Assembly (NCBI GenBank): GCA_003141795.1
Contig: PLNO01000188.1
Coordinates: 1 to 14,168, forward strand
DNA from: Spirochaetaceae bacterium
GTDB lineage: Bacteria > Spirochaetota > Spirochaetia > SZUA-6 > Fen-1364
Length of the DNA: 14,168 nt
Direction: 5' to 3'
The translations under genes were made by a program, and so were the position numbers. Of the stretch, positions 730-9,816 are shown in pieces; the stretch's first letter is position 1, and each line of letters starts with the position of its first letter. A model generated the notes under the pieces. That model ran no database searches and had not been told where the DNA came from. It saw only the letters and a program-made list of their open reading frames with translations.

Positions 730-2244
730 ATGAAGAGCGAGCAACGAGACGCGCGGCTCCTGGAGGCGTACTTCCGCGGCCGCTGGGATGCCCCGGACCT
801 CCCCGTGATCGACGACAGGACCTGGGGAGACCTCGACATGGATGCGGTGTTCGGCACCGTGGATCGGACCTGCTCCTCCGTGGGCCAGTCCTGCCTGTAC
901 GACATGATGCGCCGCCCGCTCTTCGATCCGGCCGAGATCCGCGGCCGCGCGGGGCGGATCGAGACGCTTGCCGCCGACCTCCCGACGCAGAACCGGCTCG
1001 GAAAGATCCTCCGCCGTCTCGGAGTCCAGACGAAATCCGAGGTGTTTCGGTTCCTCTCCGCGGAGCGGGACTCGATCGAGGACCGCCGCCGCTACCTCTA
1101 CATCGGCCTGAGTGCACTCGCCGTGATCGCGATCCCCCTGGCGATCCTGCTGGGCGCGAAAGGACTCCTCCTCCTCGGCGCGGTGACCGTCGTGAACCTC
1201 GTGATCCACTACCGGTTCAAGGTGGTGGTGGCCGCGGAGTCTCCCTCCTACGAATACCTTCACAGGCTCCTCGTGGCAGCCGACAGGCTGTCCGCGCTCG
1301 AAGTCCCCGCGGTTGCACGGGAGCTCGCCGAGCTGCGCGTGGTAAGCGCATCGTTTCGAAAGCTGCGCCGACGCACGGCGCTTCTCATCACCCCCAGCGG
1401 CGTCTCGGGTGACATCTTTGCTCTGTTCATGGAGTACATCCGGCAGTACTTCCTGCAAGAGGTGACGACGTACTTCCTCGTCCACAATGAGATCGCACTC
1501 CGGCGCGCGGAGCTCGCCCGGATCTACGCCCTGGTGGGCGGCATCGATGCCCTTCGCTCGGCCGCCGTGCTCCGCGCGGAAACGCGCGGCCTCTGCGTGC
1601 CTGAGATCGTGCCCGGCCGCCTCTTCGAGGCGGCGGAGGCGGTCCACCCGCTACTAGAGGAGCCCGTAGCCAACACGCTCCGCATGGACGGCAGGGGCGT
1701 GATCGTCACGGGATCCAACATGTCGGGAAAGTCGACGTTCCTGCGGACGCTCGGCGTGAACCAGGTCCTCGCCACGACGCTCGGTCTGGCCTACGCGCGG
1801 CGCATGCGTGTGGGGGCGATGCTCACGGTGACCTCCATCACGAACAGGGACAACATCATGGCCTCCGAGAGCCATTACCTCGTCGAGGCCAAGCGGCTCC
1901 TGGACATCCTGGCAGCGGCGCGCTCGGAACGCCCGGCGCTCGTGATCATCGACGAGATCCTCTCCGGCACCAATTCCGAGGAGCGCATTGCCGCCTCCGT
2001 GGCCATTCTTCGTCACCTGGCGGGCCTCAACTGCATCGTCGTCGCGGCGACACACGACAGGGCCATCGCGTCAGACCTTGCCGATACGTTCGATACCCGG
2101 CACTTCACCCATAAGGTCGAGGAGGAGGGGCTGCAGTTCGACTACACGCTCCACGAGGGGATCGTCGAGGCGGGAAACGCGATCAAGCTCCTCAGGCTCC
2201 TGGGATATCCGGCGGAGATCATGGAGGGCCTGGGGAAGCCCTGA
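730..2244 (+). CDS. MutS-family ATPase with two transmembrane segments
   Basis: This 504-residue protein has a MutS-type ATPase at its C-terminus: Walker A GSNMSGKST (residues 328-336), Walker B ALVIIDE (403-409), a following SGTNSEER segment, and a late ATHDRAIA segment. The N-terminal part matches the MutS core (DLDMDAVFGTVDRT and LYDMMRRPL). Two adjacent hydrophobic stretches at about 123-142 and 146-163 look like a membrane hairpin, which true mismatch-repair MutS lacks. The mismatch-recognition domain I is absent, and at 504 residues it is far shorter than MutS (about 850). It therefore belongs to the small membrane-associated MutS-related group whose role is unknown, and should not be called a mismatch-repair enzyme. 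The ATG at 730 is the only plausible start, because a TAG lies four codons upstream in frame. It ends one base from the convergent dehydrogenase gene. Confidence 0.88.
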   Translation: MKSEQRDARLLEAYFRGRWDAPDLPVIDDRTWGDLDMDAVFGTVDRTCSSVGQSCLYDMMRRPLFDPAEIRGRAGRIETLAADLPTQNRLGKILRRLGVQTKSEVFRFLSAERDSIEDRRRYLYIGLSALAVIAIPLAILLGAKGLLLLGAVTVVNLVIHYRFKVVVAAESPSYEYLHRLLVAADRLSALEVPAVARELAELRVVSASFRKLRRRTALLITPSGVSGDIFALFMEYIRQYFLQEVTTYFLVHNEIALRRAELARIYALVGGIDALRSAAVLRAETRGLCVPEIVPGRLFEAAEAVHPLLEEPVANTLRMDGRGVIVTGSNMSGKSTFLRTLGVNQVLATTLGLAYARRMRVGAMLTVTSITNRDNIMASESHYLVEAKRLLDILAAARSERPALVIIDEILSGTNSEERIAASVAILRHLAGLNCIVVAATHDRAIASDLADTFDTRHFTHKVEEEGLQFDYTLHEGIVEAGNAIKLLRLLGYPAEIMEGLGKP

Positions 2245-3543: not shown

Positions 3544-4125
3544 TTACCACCCGATGGAGACGCCCGCGCTCAGGGTGACCTGGACGAGCCCGAGGTTCGT
3601 GGTGTCGAAGGGGGTCACGGGCACTGCGCTCTTGTACGGAGTGTAGGCGGCCTTCGCGGAGAGCAGGAGCCCGTCGAGGTTCAGCGCGAGCCCCGCGGCG
3701 ACGAAGGGAAAGAGCGACATGTACAGGTCCTGGCTGGCCGGGCGGGACCACTGATCGAGCAGGACCCGTCCCGAGCAGCCCACGCCCACCTGGACGAAGG
3801 GATCGAGCAGCCAGTTGGCGCCCAGGGGATGGAAGCTCATGAACAGGGCGGGTGCGTACCAGTCCAACCACCAGGTCGAGCCGCTGTCGCGGAAGAAGTC
3901 CACCATATAGTCCCCGCCGAACCCGATCCGATCGAGGATGACCTCCCAGCCGAAACCGCAGGAAAGCGGCTGGCCTCCGACGGAGAATGTGGATATAATT
4001 TGTTCCGCGGAAACTGCACCAAGAAAGTCGGCTGAGAGATCCCCCGTGAGGTGCACGGCGCTCGCGAAACAGGGAACGCTCGAGCCTGCAAGCACCAGCA
4101 CGAGGACGAGATACTTGGTCTTCAT
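3544..4125 (-). CDS. Small predicted outer-membrane beta-barrel protein
   Basis: I do not recognise a named family. The 193-residue product starts with a clear signal peptide: Lys near the N-terminus, a run of Leu and Val at residues 6-13, and probable cleavage after FASA at 20-23. The rest is rich in aromatic and Gly residues, with alternating hydrophobic stretches. It ends in a strand-like LSAGVSIGW with a terminal Trp, as many outer-membrane barrels end in an aromatic residue. An outer-membrane or surface location is therefore inferred. The start is firm: AAAGGAGG lies seven bases before the ATG. A TTGACG sits upstream at 4174-4169, but its -10 partner (TACGAC, 15-base spacing) is poor. 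The gene is divergent from the sigma-factor operon and 77 bases upstream of the polyol dehydrogenase gene. Confidence 0.75.
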   Translation of the reverse strand: MKTKYLVLVLVLAGSSVPCFASAVHLTGDLSADFLGAVSAEQIISTFSVGGQPLSCGFGWEVILDRIGFGGDYMVDFFRDSGSTWWLDWYAPALFMSFHPLGANWLLDPFVQVGVGCSGRVLLDQWSRPASQDLYMSLFPFVAAGLALNLDGLLLSAKAAYTPYKSAVPVTPFDTTNLGLVQVTLSAGVSIGW

Positions 4126-4202
4126 CGGATCGCCTCCTTTGTCCGTTGTCGTACACGTTGAACACCATCGTCAAGGCGGGGCGTTACTCTGGAGGTTTCG
4201 CG

Positions 4203-4243
4203 ACACGGGGTGACATCCCGTCGGGATATCCGTGTTGTATAGT
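4203..4243 (+). promoter_or_regulatory. Nested dyad and -10 element upstream of the sigma-factor operon
   Basis: TATAGT (4238-4243) is a good -10, but nothing resembling a -35 lies 16-18 bases upstream. That place is taken by an inverted repeat ATCCCG-T-CGGGAT (4215-4227), nested in an outer repeat ACACGG / CCGTGT (4203-4208 and 4230-4235). This arrangement suggests a promoter that depends on a regulator bound at the dyad. I saw no typical ECF promoter (GGAAC with CGTC) that would indicate autoregulation. Confidence 0.4.
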
Positions 4244-4257
4244 CTGATGAGTGGGAG

Positions 4258-4743
4258 ATGCGAGTGGCGCTGGATGTCGATGCCCTCTACAGGAAGTACG
4301 GACCCATGGTCCTCCGCCGGTGCCGCAGGCTGCTCATCGACGAGGAGCTCGCCATGGACGCGATGCAGGAGACCTTCGTGAAGCTCATCCGCTACCAGGG
4401 CTCCCTGGATGACAAGGCCCCCTCCAGCATGCTCTACACAATCGCAACGAACATCTGCCTGAACATGATCCGCACGTCCCAGCGCAGGCCGCGCTCCGCG
4501 GGGGACGAAAGACTCGATTTCATCGCTTCCGTGGAGGACGTGGAGAGCCGTGCCGTTGACCGCACTCTCCTCGACGGGATTTTTCGACGGGAGCGCGCCT
4601 CCACCCGCGTCATGGCCGTCATGCATTACGTGGACGGAATGACCCTGGAGGAGGTGGCAGGCCACGTCGGGCTGTCCGTGTCCGGCGTGCGCAAGAGACT
4701 TCGCCAGCTCAGGGAGCGCACGCGCGCCCTGGAGGAGGCATAG
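4258..4743 (+). CDS. ECF-type RNA polymerase sigma factor
   Basis: This 161-residue protein has the two-domain layout of extracytoplasmic-function sigma factors. Region 2 (about residues 10-75) includes LAMDAMQETFVKLIR and a Trp-poor version of the DNA-melting helix ending TNICLNMIR. Region 4 (about 105-158) carries the helix-turn-helix MTLEEVAGHVGLSVSGVRKR. It would direct RNA polymerase to its own promoter set. The next gene encodes a single-pass membrane protein of the kind that holds such sigma factors inactive. Two starts are possible: ATG 4258, or GTG 4264 in the same frame. The GGGAG at 4253-4257 is abutted to the ATG but six bases from the GTG, so GTG 4264 may be the true start. The stop is two bases from the next gene, indicating one operon. 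Confidence 0.88.
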   Translation: MRVALDVDALYRKYGPMVLRRCRRLLIDEELAMDAMQETFVKLIRYQGSLDDKAPSSMLYTIATNICLNMIRTSQRRPRSAGDERLDFIASVEDVESRAVDRTLLDGIFRRERASTRVMAVMHYVDGMTLEEVAGHVGLSVSGVRKRLRQLRERTRALEEA

Positions 4744-4745
4744 GC

Positions 4746-5519
4746 ATGACGCAGAAGCAGAGAGTGTCAGACCTGATGCTCGAACAGTACCGCCTCGGGG
4801 AGCTCTCCACGCATGACAGCACCCTTGTTCGCGAATCCCTCGCGGAGGACGCCGAGCTTCGCGCCCGTCTGTCGGCGCTCGACGAGTCCGACCAGGAGAT
4901 CCGCGCGTCCCATCCGGCGGAAAGCATCGTCCCGGAGATCCGTGAGAGGATGCTCCGTCAGGGGACATCCCGGAGGCGACGCACCGTGCAGCCCGTTGCC
5001 TGGGGCATCGCCGTCGCGGCAATGGCGCTGGTGGTCTTTTCCGTCGTCGTCGCGCGGCAATCCTTCGCGGGGGACGGGACGCGCCTGAAAGGGCTCACCC
5101 CGCATCTCAGCGTGTTCAGAAAGACGCTGGCCGGGGCCGAGGAGCTGCGCGCCGGCTCACTTGCCCGCAGCGGCGACGTCCTGCAGCTCAGCTATGCAGC
5201 AGGGGAGGCCCGCTACGGGGTGATCTTCTCCGTCGACGGCCGCGGCTCGGTCACCTGGCACCTGCCGTCGGGGGCGTCGGGCAGCGCGCCCGAGCTTGAC
5301 CGGCAGGGGCTGGTCGTCCTGGCCTCCGCGTACGAGCTGGACGATGCGCCCGGCTTCGAACGGTTCTTCCTCGTCTACGGCTCGTCCCCCTTCTCCGTGG
5401 AAGATGTCGCCCGCATGGTCCAGGCCCTGGCGTCGCGCCCCACGAGGGCGGAGCGTGAGACCCTCCCGCTCCCCCATGACCTCGGACAGTACTCTCTGCT
5501 CGTGAAGAAACAGGGATAG
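4746..5519 (+). CDS. Single-pass membrane protein, probable anti-sigma factor with DUF4384/ActD-like outer domain
   Basis: The 257-residue product has a short cytoplasmic part (1-83) beginning MLEQYRLGELS, like the N-termini of anti-sigma factors. A basic RRRR cluster just precedes one transmembrane helix (84-102), which places the rest outside the cytoplasm. The outer part (about 115-250) contains GDVLQLSYAAGEARYGVIF and VDGRGSVTWHLP, a pattern resembling DUF4384 and ActD-like domains often found beside caspase-like proteases. No HxxxCxxC zinc motif is present, so any sigma binding would be zinc-independent. GGAGGAGG is well placed before the ATG. It is two bases from the sigma gene and four from the caspase gene. 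The anti-sigma role rests on position and topology and is an inference. Confidence 0.68.
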   Translation: MTQKQRVSDLMLEQYRLGELSTHDSTLVRESLAEDAELRARLSALDESDQEIRASHPAESIVPEIRERMLRQGTSRRRRTVQPVAWGIAVAAMALVVFSVVVARQSFAGDGTRLKGLTPHLSVFRKTLAGAEELRAGSLARSGDVLQLSYAAGEARYGVIFSVDGRGSVTWHLPSGASGSAPELDRQGLVVLASAYELDDAPGFERFFLVYGSSPFSVEDVARMVQALASRPTRAERETLPLPHDLGQYSLLVKKQG

Positions 5520-5523
5520 GGAA

Positions 5524-7893
5524 ATGAAAGTGAAAAAGCTCCTGGTCGTCGCGCTTTTCGCCGCAATCGCATGGGGCGCGGCCGCGGAGACACCCGTTGC
5601 GATGCGGAGGTTCGCCTTCGTCGCCGGCTCCAACGACGGCGGAGAGTCGCTCGTGAAGCTGCGCTACGCGGAGAGCGACGCACGCTCGTTCGCCTCGGTG
5701 TTGCAGGACCTTGGCGGTGTGCGGCCCCAGGACATGGTCCTCGTCACCGGGCCGACCGTGCAGCGCTTCCGCGACGCGCTTTCGAGAGTCCGACAGATGA
5801 TCGGCACCCCTCGGGAGCTGGACGAGCGCAGGGAGCTCGTCTTCTACTATTCAGGTCATTCGGATGACGACGGGTTCCTCCTGGGAAAGGACCGCGTGTC
5901 GTGGGATGACCTGCGGGCGGATTTGAACGGCATCCCCGCCGATATCAAAGTGGCGATCGTCGACTCCTGCTCTTCGGGCTCCCTCACACGGGCGAAGGGC
6001 GGCATGAGTCGGCCCGCCTTCCTCTTCGACGCCTCTTCCGACATGACCGGTCACGCCTACCTCACCTCGGCTTCCGCTGAGGAGGCGGCGCAGGAATCGG
6101 ACAGGATCGGAAGCTCGTTCTTCACGCATTTCCTCATCTCGGGTCTGCGCGGCGCCGCCGATGCCGCGGGAGACGGCGTCGTTACCCTCGAGGAGGCCTA
6201 CGCGTATGCCTACAAGGAAACGCTCGCCTCGACGGAGAAGACCCAGTACGGGCCGCAGCACCCCGCGCGGGAGATGGACATCGCAGGTTCGGGCAACATC
6301 GTGCTCACCGATCTGCGCTCCTCCGCGGCGGGGGTTACGGTCTCCGAAGACATCGCCGGAAGGCTGTACTTCCGCGACAGTCAGGGAGACCTCGCCGTGG
6401 AGCTCAACAAGACCTACGGCGACAAGGTGGAGCTCGGCCTGGAGCCCGACACCTACTCGGTGGTGCTGGACAGCACGAAGGGTGCCCGCCTCGGCGGTGA
6501 AATCAAGGTTACAACGAGGCAGAGGACCGTCCTCGTCCTGTCGCAGCTTCGCCCGGTGACTCTGGATCAGGCCACGGCGCGGGGCGACCAGAGCGGATCC
6601 ACCGATCAAGCCGCGGCCCAGCCTGCCGTACAGCCCGCCCAGACCGCGGCAGCGCCCGGAGCGGGCGACGTGATCGGTGCCGCGGTGGGCGCCGCAGTCG
6701 GCTCGGCCCTGGGCAGGGCCGTCGGCACGGCCGTGGGCTCCGCGGTGACCGCCGCGATCACCGCCGCATCGGCGGTCCAGTCGGCAACAGCCCCTGCCGC
6801 AGCCCCGGCACCCGATCCCCGTCCTCCGGAGCCCGAGCCGCTTTCCTCCGCGGACAAGAGTCCGCGGCCGGCAGTGTTCCATTTCTCCTTCTTTCCCGAC
6901 CTCGGCCGCGGGTTCTTCGCGTCACAGGACGACCACATCATCTCGGTCAATCTCCTGGCCGGGACTTCAGGCTCGTCGCGCGGCTTCGAGGTGGGCGGTC
7001 TGGCCAATCTCGAGTCGGGGGACGTGATCGGTTTCCAGGCCGCGGGGCTGGCAAACCTTGCGCTGGGCACTCTCACCGGCTTCCAGGCCGCGGGGCTCTT
7101 CAATTACCTCGGCGGCGAAGCCCGGTTCTTCCAGACCGCAGGTCTCGTGAACGTGAGCGCGGGTGTCGCCGGCGCCCAGGTGGCCGGGTGGGGCAATGTA
7201 TCGCTGGGTGCGGTGCGCGGCGCGCAGATCGCCGGCCTCTTCAACTGGGCGGACAGCTCGCTTGCCGGCGTGCAGATCGCGGGGGTCGCGAACTGGGGCG
7301 CGGCCGTGAAGGGCCCGCAGATCAGCGTCATCAACGTCGCGGACTCCGTCACCGGCGCGCAGATCGGTGTCGTCAACATCGCCCGTCACGTCACCGGCAC
7401 GCAGATCGGCGTGCTGAACTTCAGCGACACCATGGACGGCCTTCCCATCGGCGTGCTCTCTCTCGAGCTGCAGGGCAGGCACGACGTGGCGCTGTGGATC
7501 GACATGGACGGGACCGCCTACACGAGCGTGAGCCTCGGCACGAAGAGGCTGTACACGGTGCTGAGCGCGGGCTGGATGCCCAGCGCGAGCCCCGTCTCCT
7601 GGTCGCTGGGATTCGGCGTCGGGGGGCGGTCGGACCTGGGCCCGCTCTACCTCGACTACGACCTGTCCATGGTGACCGCCATGGAGAGCCTGGCGAGCTC
7701 GGAGTACACGACCCTCGGCTATCAGTACCCGCGGATCAGGCTCGTTGCCGGCCTCCCGCTGTTCGGCGGAGTGTCGGTGGAGGCAGGGGCCACGCTGCGC
7801 ATCCTGTTGCCCTACCTGTCGACCTACATCACGGGGGCGGACCCGTCCGGAACGGTCTTCCAGCCCGGCTTCATCGTGGGAGTGAAACTGTGA
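5524..7893 (+). CDS. Exported caspase-like protease (peptidase C14) fused to glycine zipper and surface repeats
   Basis: This 789-residue protein opens with a signal peptide (residues 1-21, ending WGAAA). A caspase-like domain (about 27-265) follows, with the catalytic His112 in YYSGHSD and Cys149 in DSCSSG. An EF-hand-like loop DAAGDGVVTLEE (213-224) is similar to calcium sites in other bacterial caspase homologues, though the third ligand position is Ala. A beta-type region (about 275-345) and a Gln/Ala/Pro linker lead to a GxxxG zipper (385-412). A Pro-rich linker then leads to ten repeats with Asn every 14-16 residues (495-632), like the LA_2272-type surface repeats. A barrel-like tail (about 640-789) ends the protein. 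It should act in the periplasm or at the cell surface and cut after a specific residue; the substrate is unknown. AGGGA at 5512-5516 is the ribosome binding site. Both catalytic residues are intact, so activity is plausible. Confidence 0.87.
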   Translation: MKVKKLLVVALFAAIAWGAAAETPVAMRRFAFVAGSNDGGESLVKLRYAESDARSFASVLQDLGGVRPQDMVLVTGPTVQRFRDALSRVRQMIGTPRELDERRELVFYYSGHSDDDGFLLGKDRVSWDDLRADLNGIPADIKVAIVDSCSSGSLTRAKGGMSRPAFLFDASSDMTGHAYLTSASAEEAAQESDRIGSSFFTHFLISGLRGAADAAGDGVVTLEEAYAYAYKETLASTEKTQYGPQHPAREMDIAGSGNIVLTDLRSSAAGVTVSEDIAGRLYFRDSQGDLAVELNKTYGDKVELGLEPDTYSVVLDSTKGARLGGEIKVTTRQRTVLVLSQLRPVTLDQATARGDQSGSTDQAAAQPAVQPAQTAAAPGAGDVIGAAVGAAVGSALGRAVGTAVGSAVTAAITAASAVQSATAPAAAPAPDPRPPEPEPLSSADKSPRPAVFHFSFFPDLGRGFFASQDDHIISVNLLAGTSGSSRGFEVGGLANLESGDVIGFQAAGLANLALGTLTGFQAAGLFNYLGGEARFFQTAGLVNVSAGVAGAQVAGWGNVSLGAVRGAQIAGLFNWADSSLAGVQIAGVANWGAAVKGPQISVINVADSVTGAQIGVVNIARHVTGTQIGVLNFSDTMDGLPIGVLSLELQGRHDVALWIDMDGTAYTSVSLGTKRLYTVLSAGWMPSASPVSWSLGFGVGGRSDLGPLYLDYDLSMVTAMESLASSEYTTLGYQYPRIRLVAGLPLFGGVSVEAGATLRILLPYLSTYITGADPSGTVFQPGFIVGVKL
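6676..6759 (+). repeat. Coding repeat: GxxxG glycine zipper in the caspase-like protein
   Basis: Residues 385-412 repeat the tetrad Gly-[AST/R]-Ala-[Val/Leu] six times, with Gly at 385, 389, 393, 397, 401 and 405. Such zippers are known in membrane-inserting and oligomerising helices. Here the helix could anchor or multimerise the protease between its catalytic and surface parts; that role is inferred. Confidence 0.75.
6994..7425 (+). repeat. Ten-unit surface repeat with Gln/Asn ladder in the caspase-like protein
   Basis: Units follow the pattern GxQxAGLxNxxxGxxxG. Asn recurs at residues 495, 511, 527, 543, 558, 574, 590, 604, 618 and 632. Gln recurs at 505, 521, 537, 552, 568, 584, 599, 613 and 627. 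The step is mostly 16 residues at first and 14 in the last three units. Regular spacing of polar residues suggests a stacked beta solenoid. The pattern resembles the LA_2272 surface-repeat family. Confidence 0.8.
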
Positions 7894-8408
7894 AAAAAAG
7901 ATTCATCATCGCCATGGGGGTGCTTCTTGCCACAGCCCCCTTCGCGATGGCGGGAGGCGCGGGCGGGTGCGGGTTCGCCATGCAGAACCCGACGCTCGGA
8001 CCTTCGAACACCGTCATGGGCATGAGCTCCATCATGGGCTACGGGTACGGAGTATCGGAGCACGGCGAGCGCTTCGGCGGCTTCGGCGCGGCCCTGTTGT
8101 CGGCGGACGGGGAGACTGACGGCGGGGTCGGCGGAGTGATGATCGGCCAGGAGCTGCGGGCAGGCCCCTTTGTCGTCGCGGTCACCCTGTGGGGCGGAGT
8201 GGGCGGCGCGGCCTACAGGGAGGCGGGCTACATGCTCCTGTTCGGCGAGGCCGATGCCGAAGTGGGCGTCAGGCTTCTCCCCTGGGTCCAGCTCACTTTC
8301 TACGCAGGCTACCAGGCCTTCGGGAACATGGTTCCCGGCGTGCCGATGAGCTCCATGTACATCTACTCGCCCGTGATGGGTGTTCGGCTGGGCTGGGGAT
8401 CGTTTTAA
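7890..8408 (+). CDS. Small exported protein, probably outer-membrane
   Basis: I do not recognise a named family. The 172-residue product starts at GTG 7890, overlapping the caspase-like gene's stop by four bases (GTGA), so the two are translationally coupled. GGGAG lies upstream. The GTG start is favoured because it yields a full signal peptide (KKRFIIAMGVLLATAPFAMA); the next ATG would remove its charged end. The mature part is rich in Gly and Met and ends LGWGSF, consistent with beta-barrel strands and an aromatic last residue. Cys27 in AGGC could instead be a relaxed lipoprotein site, as spirochaetes tolerate non-standard ones. Being last in the operon, it may be an envelope partner of the caspase-like protein. 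Confidence 0.72.
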   Translation: MKKRFIIAMGVLLATAPFAMAGGAGGCGFAMQNPTLGPSNTVMGMSSIMGYGYGVSEHGERFGGFGAALLSADGETDGGVGGVMIGQELRAGPFVVAVTLWGGVGGAAYREAGYMLLFGEADAEVGVRLLPWVQLTFYAGYQAFGNMVPGVPMSSMYIYSPVMGVRLGWGSF

Positions 8409-8435: not shown

Positions 8436-8457
8436 GGGCTGCCATATCCGGCAGCCC
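8436..8457. terminator. Hairpin between the caspase operon and the convergent DUF4097 gene
   Basis: GGGCTGCC (8436-8443) and GGCAGCCC (8450-8457) form a perfect 8-bp stem with a six-base loop. It lies 28 bases after the operon's last stop and 25 before the convergent gene's stop. The downstream sequence is only weakly T-rich (CTCCTT), so it is a likely but not classical bidirectional terminator. Confidence 0.6.
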
Positions 8458-8481: not shown

Positions 8482-9420
8482 TTAGTTCTTCGAGAGGTCG
8501 ATGCTCCCGCTCATGGTCCCGATGTCGACGACCGCCGCGCCCGTCCCGACCCTTCCCTCCAGCCTGTTGTTCTTCTGTTCGCTGATCGTGACGGGAAATC
8601 CGCACGACACCCGGCCGCTCAGGGAGTGCAGCGTCAGCCGCGCGTCCAGGCCGGAAAACGCCCCTACGGATACGGATCCCGAGATGGTGTTGAGCTGCGC
8701 GGAGCCCGCTTGCGGCAAGGCTGCGATGGTCCCGTTGATCGATCCCGACACCGAATGGGCGTTCAGCGCGCCCTCCGATACGAAGCGTATTCCTCCGCTC
8801 GTGGTGGAAACGTCGAGGTTGCGCGCCCTGGTCGTGGCAACGGATCCCGAAATCGTCCCAAGGGTCTGGTCGATGCCGGCCGGCACGTCGTGCACGGCGA
8901 GGCTGCCGCTCACCGAGTGCGCCTCCACGACCTTCACCCCCGCCGGAATGGAGATGCGGAACGATACGGTGGCCGCGTGTCCCATGAAGCGCGAATCGTG
9001 CTGCTCCTGGACGATGAGGCGGCTGCCCTGTTTCTCGATATCCACGCGGACCCCGTCCATCGCGGCGGGGAAGGGCGCAGTCTTCACCGAGTGTACCGCT
9101 GCACTCCCGCCCGCCGGGGCTCCTGCGATGTCGATGGAGCCGGCAATCGTCCTCACCTCGACCTCCGTGATGTCCCCGGACGGCACCTGCTCGTCCTTCT
9201 CCTCGCGCACGGAGTTCCCATGTCGAGCGTCGTCGCGGTCGTTGCCGAACCAGGGAGCTCTGCCCATGTCCCAGAACATGCGGCCCTGCGGGAAGTGGAA
9301 TCCGCCGGTGAACATCCGGCCCTGCACGATGCCGATGAAGCTGCCGATCGCCATGAGGATCACGAGCACCCCCAGCGAGATGCCGAGGACGTCGGTGGGG
9401 CTATGGCTTGTCCGACTCAT
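8482..9420 (-). CDS. Membrane-anchored DUF4097-type beta-repeat protein
   Basis: The 312-residue product has one N-terminal transmembrane segment (about 12-32), a charged linker, then a repetitive beta region. The motif [S/T]-x-S-G-[S/G/R]-hydrophobic recurs at about residues 169, 189, 206, 223, 245, 266 and 302, with a related TIAGSI at 91. This SGS ladder is characteristic of DUF4097, a family of putative adhesin or beta-helix domains, often found beside small membrane regulators. A beta-helix exposed outside the cytoplasm is likely; the ligand is unknown. The ATG at 9420 has GGAG seven bases upstream. The first 20 bases overlap the end of the 2TM gene, so the two are translated together. 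Confidence 0.82.
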   Translation of the reverse strand: MSRTSHSPTDVLGISLGVLVILMAIGSFIGIVQGRMFTGGFHFPQGRMFWDMGRAPWFGNDRDDARHGNSVREEKDEQVPSGDITEVEVRTIAGSIDIAGAPAGGSAAVHSVKTAPFPAAMDGVRVDIEKQGSRLIVQEQHDSRFMGHAATVSFRISIPAGVKVVEAHSVSGSLAVHDVPAGIDQTLGTISGSVATTRARNLDVSTTSGGIRFVSEGALNAHSVSGSINGTIAALPQAGSAQLNTISGSVSVGAFSGLDARLTLHSLSGRVSCGFPVTISEQKNNRLEGRVGTGAAVVDIGTMSGSIDLSKN

Positions 9421-9682
9421 TCATCTTCTCCAGCTCTTTGCGGGCGAGCCTGTCCACCATGTTTCCCGACTGGTAGAGATAGGCCGAAAGGAAGTGCGAT
9501 ACCACCCCGATCCCCCATCCCAGAGCCGCCCAGAGCCACCACTGGTAGCCGCCCCAGGTGAGGTTGTTGATGAGCGCCAGGGCCACCATCACCACGACAT
9601 ACGTGATCGCATGTCGGATGAATCCGACCTTCTTCTCCGCGATTTTGCGGGCAAGCGCGAGCTTGTCATTGACGTCAGACAT
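9401..9682 (-). CDS. Small 2TM-domain membrane protein
   Basis: This 93-residue protein has two transmembrane helices at about 25-42 and 47-69, flanked by charged ends. The segments LINNLTWGGYQWWLW and GWGIGVVSHF are typical of the 2TM domain, a small membrane module found alone or fused to signalling proteins. The start is set by GAGGAGG seven bases before ATG 9682. The frame stays open for another 39 codons upstream, but that stretch crosses a promoter-like region and lacks a ribosome site. It overlaps the DUF4097 gene by 20 bases, and the two probably act together in the membrane. The molecular role is unknown. Confidence 0.82.
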   Translation of the reverse strand: MSDVNDKLALARKIAEKKVGFIRHAITYVVVMVALALINNLTWGGYQWWLWAALGWGIGVVSHFLSAYLYQSGNMVDRLARKELEKMNESDKP

Positions 9683-9713
9683 TTCCGTCCTCCTCTTTCC
9701 ATTGTCTGTTCTG

Positions 9714-9722
9714 GATATAACA
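9714..9722 (-). promoter_or_regulatory. Candidate extended -10 for the 2TM-DUF4097 pair
   Basis: On the minus strand, TGTTATATC (9722-9714) resembles an extended -10 (TGn plus TATATC), about 30 bases before the 2TM start. I found no clear -35. It is the only promoter-like element on that strand in this gap. Confidence 0.35.
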
Positions 9723-9767
9723 CCAAGAATACCCCCGCGTGTCGGTAATGAGAAGGGCCGCCGCGGC

Positions 9768-9796
9768 TTCACAGGCCCGAGCCGCTCGGGTATAAC
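9768..9796 (+). promoter_or_regulatory. Strong promoter with a dyad operator in its spacer (xylulokinase gene)
   Basis: TTCACA (9768-9773), a 17-base spacer and TATAAC (9791-9796) each match five of six consensus bases. The spacer contains the perfect dyad CCCGAGC-C-GCTCGGG (9776-9790), directly abutting the -10. A dimeric repressor bound there would block RNA polymerase, consistent with substrate-induced expression of a sugar kinase. The regulator is not in the window. Confidence 0.7.
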
Positions 9797-9816
9797 CATG
9801 CCAAGAGGAGAACATT

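What the first reader, a model, noticed from the sequence alone, without database searches (positions are those of the whole stretch)
4258..8408. Four-gene operon joining an ECF sigma factor, a membrane regulator, an exported caspase-like protease and an envelope protein
Spacings of +2, +4 and -4 bases and a terminal hairpin show a single transcription unit. The parts suggest an envelope signalling circuit in which a caspase-like enzyme outside the cytoplasm works with a sigma/anti-sigma pair. Possibilities are cutting the outer domain of the membrane protein to release the sigma factor, or being the output of that sigma factor during stress or cell death. Sigma/ActD-like/caspase neighbours are known to me from other diderms, but this complete set with a surface-repeat protease seems little described.
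Basis: partly seen in the sequence, partly recalled or inferred. Interest (0 to 1): 0.78.

Follow-up and report, generated by a model that had tools for sequence, protein, structure and literature searches.

The report
Caspase-linked envelope sigma-factor operon
Bacteria labelled as many different phyla carry the same three genes in a row: a gene switch, the membrane protein that probably holds it off, and a caspase predicted to hang from the outer membrane, and matching sequence signatures suggest that the caspase cuts the holder to turn the switch on.

Summary
The four genes, their spacings (+2, +4, -4) and a terminal hairpin are there. The conserved unit is the first three: ECF sigma, membrane anti-sigma, exported caspase, in that order in 64 of 80 related loci labelled as nine or more phyla. 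Gene 4 belongs to close relatives.

New evidence points to a mechanism. (1) The modelled caspase protein is caspase fold, beta-solenoid, 8-stranded outer-membrane-type barrel, so the protease should face the periplasm. (2) The flexible linker just outside the anti-sigma's membrane helix carries a nearly invariant T-R-x-K-G; the caspase carries the same motif 6-10 residues after its catalytic Cys. Lys-Gly stands in both partners in 142 of 166 pairs. (3) GTRACA-N16-GTGTT precedes the sigma gene in 45 of 64 sets (shuffles 0-2), and a near copy faces the divergent exported gene.

Best reading: the tethered caspase is the site-1 protease of this anti-sigma; sigma autoregulates and drives envelope genes. 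The cut is inferred, not shown; motif covariation is not significant once kinship is allowed for, and caspases without an adjacent anti-sigma keep the motif. Sigma factors in metacaspase operons were noted in 2012 (PMC3501461).

The parts
4210..4236 (+). sigma-operon promoter GTRACA-N16-GTGTT, ending 21 nt before the sigma ATG
   Evidence: same motif and spacing in 45 of 64 sets
4161..4187 (-). near copy of the promoter (GTAACG-N16-GTGTT), facing the divergent gene
3544..4125 (-). small exported, by eye barrel-like protein (193 aa), predicted regulon member
   Evidence: homologues in 6 loci; GTRACR-N16-GTGTT before 6 of the 7 genes
4258..4743 (+). ECF sigma factor (161 aa)
4746..5519 (+). membrane anti-sigma factor (257 aa)
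5007..5066 (+). membrane helix of the anti-sigma (residues 88-107)
5079..5093 (+). TRLKG motif (residues 112-116) in the juxtamembrane linker: proposed caspase cut site
5094..5516 (+). outer beta domain, DUF4384-like by weak matches
5524..7893 (+). exported caspase with solenoid and barrel (789 aa)
5593..6324 (+). caspase fold (residues 24-267); catalytic His112 at 5857-5859, Cys149 at 5968-5970
5986..6000 (+). TRAKG (residues 155-159) after the catalytic Cys: proposed self-processing site
6865..7470 (+). beta-solenoid with LA_2272 repeats (about residues 448-649)
7471..7890 (+). C-terminal 8-stranded outer-membrane-type barrel (residues 650-789)
7890..8408 (+). gene 4: exported-looking 172-aa protein, lineage-restricted accessory
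8436..8457 (+). hairpin after the operon, between convergent genes, no T-run

Best explanation
A self-contained outer-membrane-to-nucleoid signalling module. The caspase is exported and anchored by its C-terminal barrel in the outer membrane, its protease domain in the periplasm (predicted). The anti-sigma spans the inner membrane, holds sigma on the inside and shows its Ig-like outer domain to the periplasm (predicted). On an envelope signal the caspase is freed or activated, cuts itself in the loop behind its catalytic Cys at T-R-x-K|G, and cuts the anti-sigma at the same motif in the juxtamembrane linker (inferred). The stub is then presumably cleared by further proteases (inferred from DegS-RseA), releasing sigma, which fires GTRACA-N16-GTGTT promoters: its own operon and a few envelope genes (inferred from conserved promoters). 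What frees the caspase is unknown; failure of its own barrel to assemble in the outer membrane would be the simplest trigger (speculation).
Against: No cleavage, binding or location was measured. On the tree, independent pairs go the right way (3.5 same, 0.5 opposite, 4.1 no difference of 8; the other way round 3.1, 0.3, 6.6 of 10) but p is about 0.25. The loop motif is a trait of the caspase family rather than of linkage: all 23 nearer-family distinct loops without an anti-sigma hit keep K[GSA], and of 12 of these looked at, 11 have upstream sequence without any sigma or anti-sigma hit. The genome of L077 has such a caspase (TRFKGG) and no anti-sigma match at all (150 of 173 candidates scored). 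Three anti-sigmas have Met for the Lys (L153, L209, L215). Of five caspases with RG in the loop two face RG, three face KS, MG or KA; two of these five (L097, L118) have a weak membrane-helix call. In 11 pairs the loop has KS while the linker has KG. In divergent pairs the motif was picked near the aligned column with a preference for basic-small dipeptides, so something is nearly always found; the figure against shifted columns is the fair one. Caspase loop 150-197 has pLDDT under 50. Foldseek alone ranks the barrel match PagL at E 0.005. The tree was quick and without mixture model.
Confidence: 0.65

Rival explanations
1. The caspase is only an output of the sigma factor: a stress-induced envelope protease or death effector. 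The anti-sigma is cut by another protease, and the shared motif marks docking or chance likeness of two short conserved sequences.
For: The sigma-type promoter precedes the operon, so the caspase should be made when sigma is active. Several regulon candidates are envelope proteins. Caspases without an adjacent anti-sigma keep the loop motif, and one such genome has no anti-sigma match.
Against: The Lys-Gly motif sits in the exposed linker and in the caspase loop and is kept while linkers otherwise diverge. Of the 15 lowest-scoring, anti-sigma-less loops 12 lack K[GSA] (the score cut is mine and was set afterwards).
Confidence: 0.19
2. The motif is a pseudosubstrate: the anti-sigma linker holds the caspase inactive at the inner membrane, and the regulation runs from anti-sigma to caspase rather than the reverse.
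For: The linker resembles the caspase's own loop, as inhibitors can do.
Against: The caspase is predicted to be tied to the outer membrane, and a Lys-Gly in a flexible linker is an easy substrate (inference).
Confidence: 0.1
3. The caspase is exposed on the cell surface, like an autotransporter passenger carried on a solenoid, and acts on outside targets; its link with sigma is only co-regulation.
For: Solenoid followed by a C-terminal barrel recalls autotransporters; NCBIfam calls the repeats surface repeats.
Against: The modelled barrel has 8 strands, not the 12 of classical autotransporters (recalled), and 10 complete short forms have no solenoid hit.
Confidence: 0.06

Closest known systems
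DegS-RseA-sigma E regulated proteolysis (E. coli)
   Same: Membrane anti-sigma, periplasmic site-1 cut, release of an ECF sigma after further proteolysis (passages on DegS and RseA seen in PMC10028731; envelope regulon and autoregulation recalled)
   Different: The protease is a caspase, not an HtrA serine protease; it is encoded in the operon and predicted to be tied to an outer-membrane barrel
Csx29-Csx30-CASP-sigma (Craspase, type III-E CRISPR)
   Same: A caspase-like (TPR-CHAT) protease cuts an inhibitor of an ECF sigma (passages of PMC10028731)
   Different: RNA-guided and CRISPR-associated; here the protease is exported, and no PADLOC model matches the four proteins
Metacaspase operons with sigma-70 genes in Myxococcus xanthus, Anaeromyxobacter, Haliangium, Sorangium, Ralstonia, Fibrobacter (PMC3501461; section 13 and passages read)
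   Same: The neighbourhood of sigma factor and caspase homologue is the same observation; probably members of this family
   Different: No anti-sigma, cut site, outer-membrane anchor or promoter in what I read of that paper
EACC2-caspase systems with an ECF sigma factor and DUF1822 (PMC8195603, passages read)
   Same: Caspase beside an ECF sigma
   Different: The second partner there is a TPR protein (DUF1822), and the caspase has an EACC2 domain and another architecture
ECF54 sigma factors with CHAT and other protease genes nearby (PMC8999054, passages read)
   Same: Caspase-type protease in the context of an ECF sigma, proteolysis proposed as control
   Different: Proposed there to work without an anti-sigma factor

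Membership tests
ECF sigma factor | regions 2 and 4 of sigma-70 | tested here: met
   PF04542 51.3 bits, PF08281 28.2 bits, both over cut-off; TIGR02937 77.8 over 42.9
Membrane anti-sigma factor | N-terminal helical domain, one membrane helix, outer domain, encoded right after sigma | tested here: met
   by model: helices 9-74, helix 88-107, beta domain from 120; adjacent in 64 of 80 loci
Membrane anti-sigma factor | match to a curated anti-sigma family over its cut-off | tested here: not met
   NF010501 33.5 bits (cut-off 225), NF052375 31.7 (cut-off 100); at E up to 0.01, 34 and 28 of 58 members match NF052375 and NF010501
Membrane anti-sigma factor | binds and inhibits its sigma | not testable with these tools
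   needs a binding assay
Caspase family C14 | Peptidase_C14 profile and His/Cys dyad | tested here: met
Caspase family C14 | proteolytic activity | not testable with these tools
   no assay
EACC1-associated caspases (NF047832) | score over the curated cut-off | tested here: not met
   58.4 bits against 140
Craspase | proteins of the CRISPR effector in the locus | tested here: not met
   no PADLOC match for the four proteins; none of the 8 other window proteins scanned hits a cas family
LA_2272 surface-repeat proteins (NF047436) | repeat domain over cut-off | tested here: met
   39.8 bits over 25
Outer-membrane beta-barrel protein | TM barrel at the C-terminus | tested here: met
Classical autotransporter | 12-stranded translocating barrel | tested here: inconclusive
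   model shows eight strands after residue 650; no autotransporter profile among the Pfam hits
DUF4384 (PF14326) | profile match of the outer domain | tested here: inconclusive
   24 of 58 members match at E up to 0.1, best 4.2e-06; window 14.1 bits against cut-off 27

The most novel reading that the evidence does not exclude
Caspases have a widespread, ancient bacterial role as dedicated site-1 proteases of envelope signalling: an outer-membrane-barrel caspase that self-processes at T-R-x-K|G and cuts its anti-sigma at a copy of the same motif, so that protease loop and substrate evolve together, in eight or more phyla, with one conserved promoter type.
Probability: 0.52. Interest if true: 0.92.

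Novelty: new variant of a known kind. Interest (0 to 1): 0.81.

Why it matters
Functions of bacterial caspase homologues outside phage defence are little known (my view of the field). A pathway with a named substrate, a predicted scissile bond and a predicted promoter can be tested directly, and would show a caspase acting as a signalling protease between two membranes, without a link to death. It would also give many diderm phyla an equivalent of DegS-RseA.

Tried and rejected

Literature: ten searches of open PMC papers. PMC3501461: section 13 and passages; PMC8195603, PMC8999054, PMC10028731: passages; all others seen as search listings only. Nothing I saw describes the barrel anchor, the shared motif or the promoter; subscription papers and preprints are not covered.
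Full report
What is there. The window (GC 63-69%) belongs to a record for which no whole genome is held. Named relatives of its caspase are Spirochaetia and Rectinemataceae proteins, and the loci found by its caspase are led by a Spirochaetaceae assembly. The caspase family is large: 599 homologues at E up to 0.001 among the 7993 candidates scored, and 153 relatives among species genomes, of which the best 80 became loci.

The conserved unit has three genes. I called ORFs in the 80 loci and searched them with profiles grown from the window proteins. In 64 of 80 loci sigma, anti-sigma and caspase follow each other on one strand; with script-chosen starts, 34 of 64 sigma/anti-sigma junctions overlap by 4 bases, 61 of 64 gaps are 20 nt or less, and 54 of 64 anti-sigma/caspase gaps are 60 nt or less. 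By record title these are 25 Spirochaetota, 17 Myxococcota, 4 Fibrobacterota, 4 labelled Pseudomonadota, 3 Latescibacterota, 3 Gemmatimonadota, 2 Aminicenantes, one each of Bdellovibrionota, Goldiibacteriota and FCPU426, and 3 without a phylum label (labels of such assemblies can be wrong). The 16 misses: 5 loci end close upstream (L014, with part of a sigma gene, L020, L053, L076, L077), 10 are Myxococcaceae, and L070. Five genomes of such misses were searched with the anti-sigma alignment: 4 have matches, the genome of L077 none. In the genome of L031 the caspase stands alone (L031/L096) and a sigma/anti-sigma pair with the linker TRIKG stands alone elsewhere (L098), beside a short gene that looks by eye like signal peptide plus barrel; L099 in the genome of L055 also has sigma and anti-sigma without a caspase called. 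Gene 4 has no relative in the 80 loci and 21 homologues; equal contig lengths suggest that two of them lie on the contigs of caspases P0002 and P0024.

The shared motif. In 66 anti-sigmas (two partial ones left out) the linker is variable except for residues 112-116: T/I/V in 59, R in 61, K in 66, G in 65. In 81 caspases the loop after the catalytic Cys reads T/V/I-R-x-K-G with T/V/I 81, R 80, K 81, G 81. In metazoan caspases the self-processing site lies about 12 residues after that Cys (recalled); here the Lys is at +9 in 135 of 166 pairs. To see whether the two move together I searched Myxococcota genomes for PF00656 (43 of 58 genomes have a match), fetched 80 regions, and found 225 caspase ORFs in all loci, 163 with a sigma gene upstream and 180 with an anti-sigma hit. 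Among 166 distinct pairs the dipeptides (linker, loop) are KG/KG 142, KG/KS 11, RG/RG 2, KS/KG 2, MG/KG 2, and one each of RG/KG, MG/RG, KG/KA, KA/KA, KA/KS, KS/RG, KA/RG. The control at nine shifted columns finds KG in 1-9 of 166, at the motif column in 154 of 166. Arg at -2 is present in both partners in 113, in neither in 30, only in the linker in 13, only in the loop in 10 (Fisher 1e-14, kinship ignored). On a caspase tree without the loop columns, independent changes agree in 3.5 and disagree in 0.5 of 8 pairs, too few for significance. RG stands in both partners in 2 pairs, in the loop alone in 3, in the linker alone in 1 (p 0.002, kinship ignored).

Results against. The loop motif goes with the caspase family, not strictly with the neighbour. 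Of 38 distinct loops without an anti-sigma hit, the 15 lowest-scoring ones have KG in 1, K[SA] in 2 and neither in 12, while all 23 nearer ones have K[GSA]. Seven of these 23 are Myxococcaceae with the lone caspase; of the 12 others that I looked at, one lies at a contig end and 11 show no sigma or anti-sigma hit upstream. They may work in trans or by themselves; not tested. Three anti-sigmas with Met at the Lys position speak against a strict Lys cut. The linkage contrast is therefore mostly ancestry, and the case for a cut rests on the linker motif, its place and its likeness to the loop.

Promoter and regulon. A dyad search upstream of the sigma genes found GTGA/TGAC and TGTT at fixed distance (top dyads in 28 of 64, shuffles 4-6). 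The form G[TA]RAC-N-N16-GTGTT, in practice GTRACA with two exceptions at its last base, occurs in 45 of 64 sets (63 loci and the window), always with 16 nt between, against 0-2 in 20 shuffles; 8 of the other 19 show near variants. In the window GTRACR-N16-GTGTT occurs twice, none expected: before the sigma gene, and on the other strand before the divergent 193-aa exported gene. Homologues of that gene lie in 6 loci, and 6 of the 7 genes, the window's included, have the motif in front. Other sites precede a TonB-dependent receptor with a TonB domain (L006), ExbB/TolQ proteins (L011, L074) and a HlyD/CusB protein (L012); further sites precede exported or other proteins that I did not scan. This fits an outer-membrane stress or maintenance regulon. 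In 16 genomes there were 43 sites, operon promoters included, against 13 of the reversed pattern, so the regulon is small and some sites are chance.

How it most likely works. Shown by computation: conserved order, export-type segment, intact dyad, modelled barrel, conserved motif in both partners, conserved promoter. Inferred: the cut at K115|G116 and self-processing at K158|G159, release of sigma after further proteolysis, autoregulation. Unknown: the trigger. Because the protease domain is fused to an outer-membrane-type barrel, failed assembly of that barrel would leave the protease loose in the periplasm, next to the anti-sigma; this is speculation with a clear test.

What is known. PMC3501461 (2012; section 13 read) reported that the four metacaspase operons of Myxococcus xanthus contain sigma-70 genes and that this structure appears in five other genera; the neighbourhood is therefore partly known. 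Protease-released ECF sigma factors are known from DegS-RseA and from CRISPR Craspase (PMC10028731, passages). I file this as a new variant of the regulated-proteolysis kind. In my ten literature searches I saw no description of the outer-membrane anchor, the motif shared by protease and anti-sigma, or the promoter; the main ECF classification paper was not held.

Noticed in passing
window 8482-9799 (-): A DUF4097 protein with a sub-cut-off LiaG match and a 2TM-domain protein face the operon from the other side; LiaG-like proteins are known from envelope stress loci (recalled).
   Followed up: no
L081, L085, L087-L097 (G002): One Myxococcus genome holds 13 Peptidase_C14 places, several in diverged sigma/anti-sigma/caspase operons, some with a Cys-rich, by eye zinc-finger-like anti-sigma N-terminus (L090, L091, L092, L094) but a similar linker motif.
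   Followed up: partly
L098 about 911-1498 (-): Beside the lone sigma/anti-sigma pair lies a short exported gene that reads by eye like a barrel without protease, perhaps a remnant.
   Followed up: no
L097 and L197: Both partners have Arg-Gly for Lys-Gly: SRG in linker and loop of L097, ARG in linker and loop of L197; the membrane helix of the L097 partner was called weakly.
   Followed up: partly
L089, L137, L152, L155, L178, L190, L221: A caspase subclass (CHSGSGKSLLP) has the Lys 21 residues after the Cys, followed by Ser, and lacks Arg at -2, as its linkers do; in sister loci (L149, L150, L158, L208) the linker has the Arg and the loop does not.
   Followed up: partly
L025 8043, L027 8148, L073 7716, L074 8038; further off L012 8898, L067 8426: A second copy of the promoter stands within 180 nt behind the caspase gene in four loci, and further behind in two, facing the next gene.
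   Followed up: partly
L040, L044: The lone Myxococcaceae caspase follows an exported protein with a by eye TonB-like N-terminal part and a lipoprotein; a TonB-like receptor is a regulon candidate elsewhere (L006).
   Followed up: no
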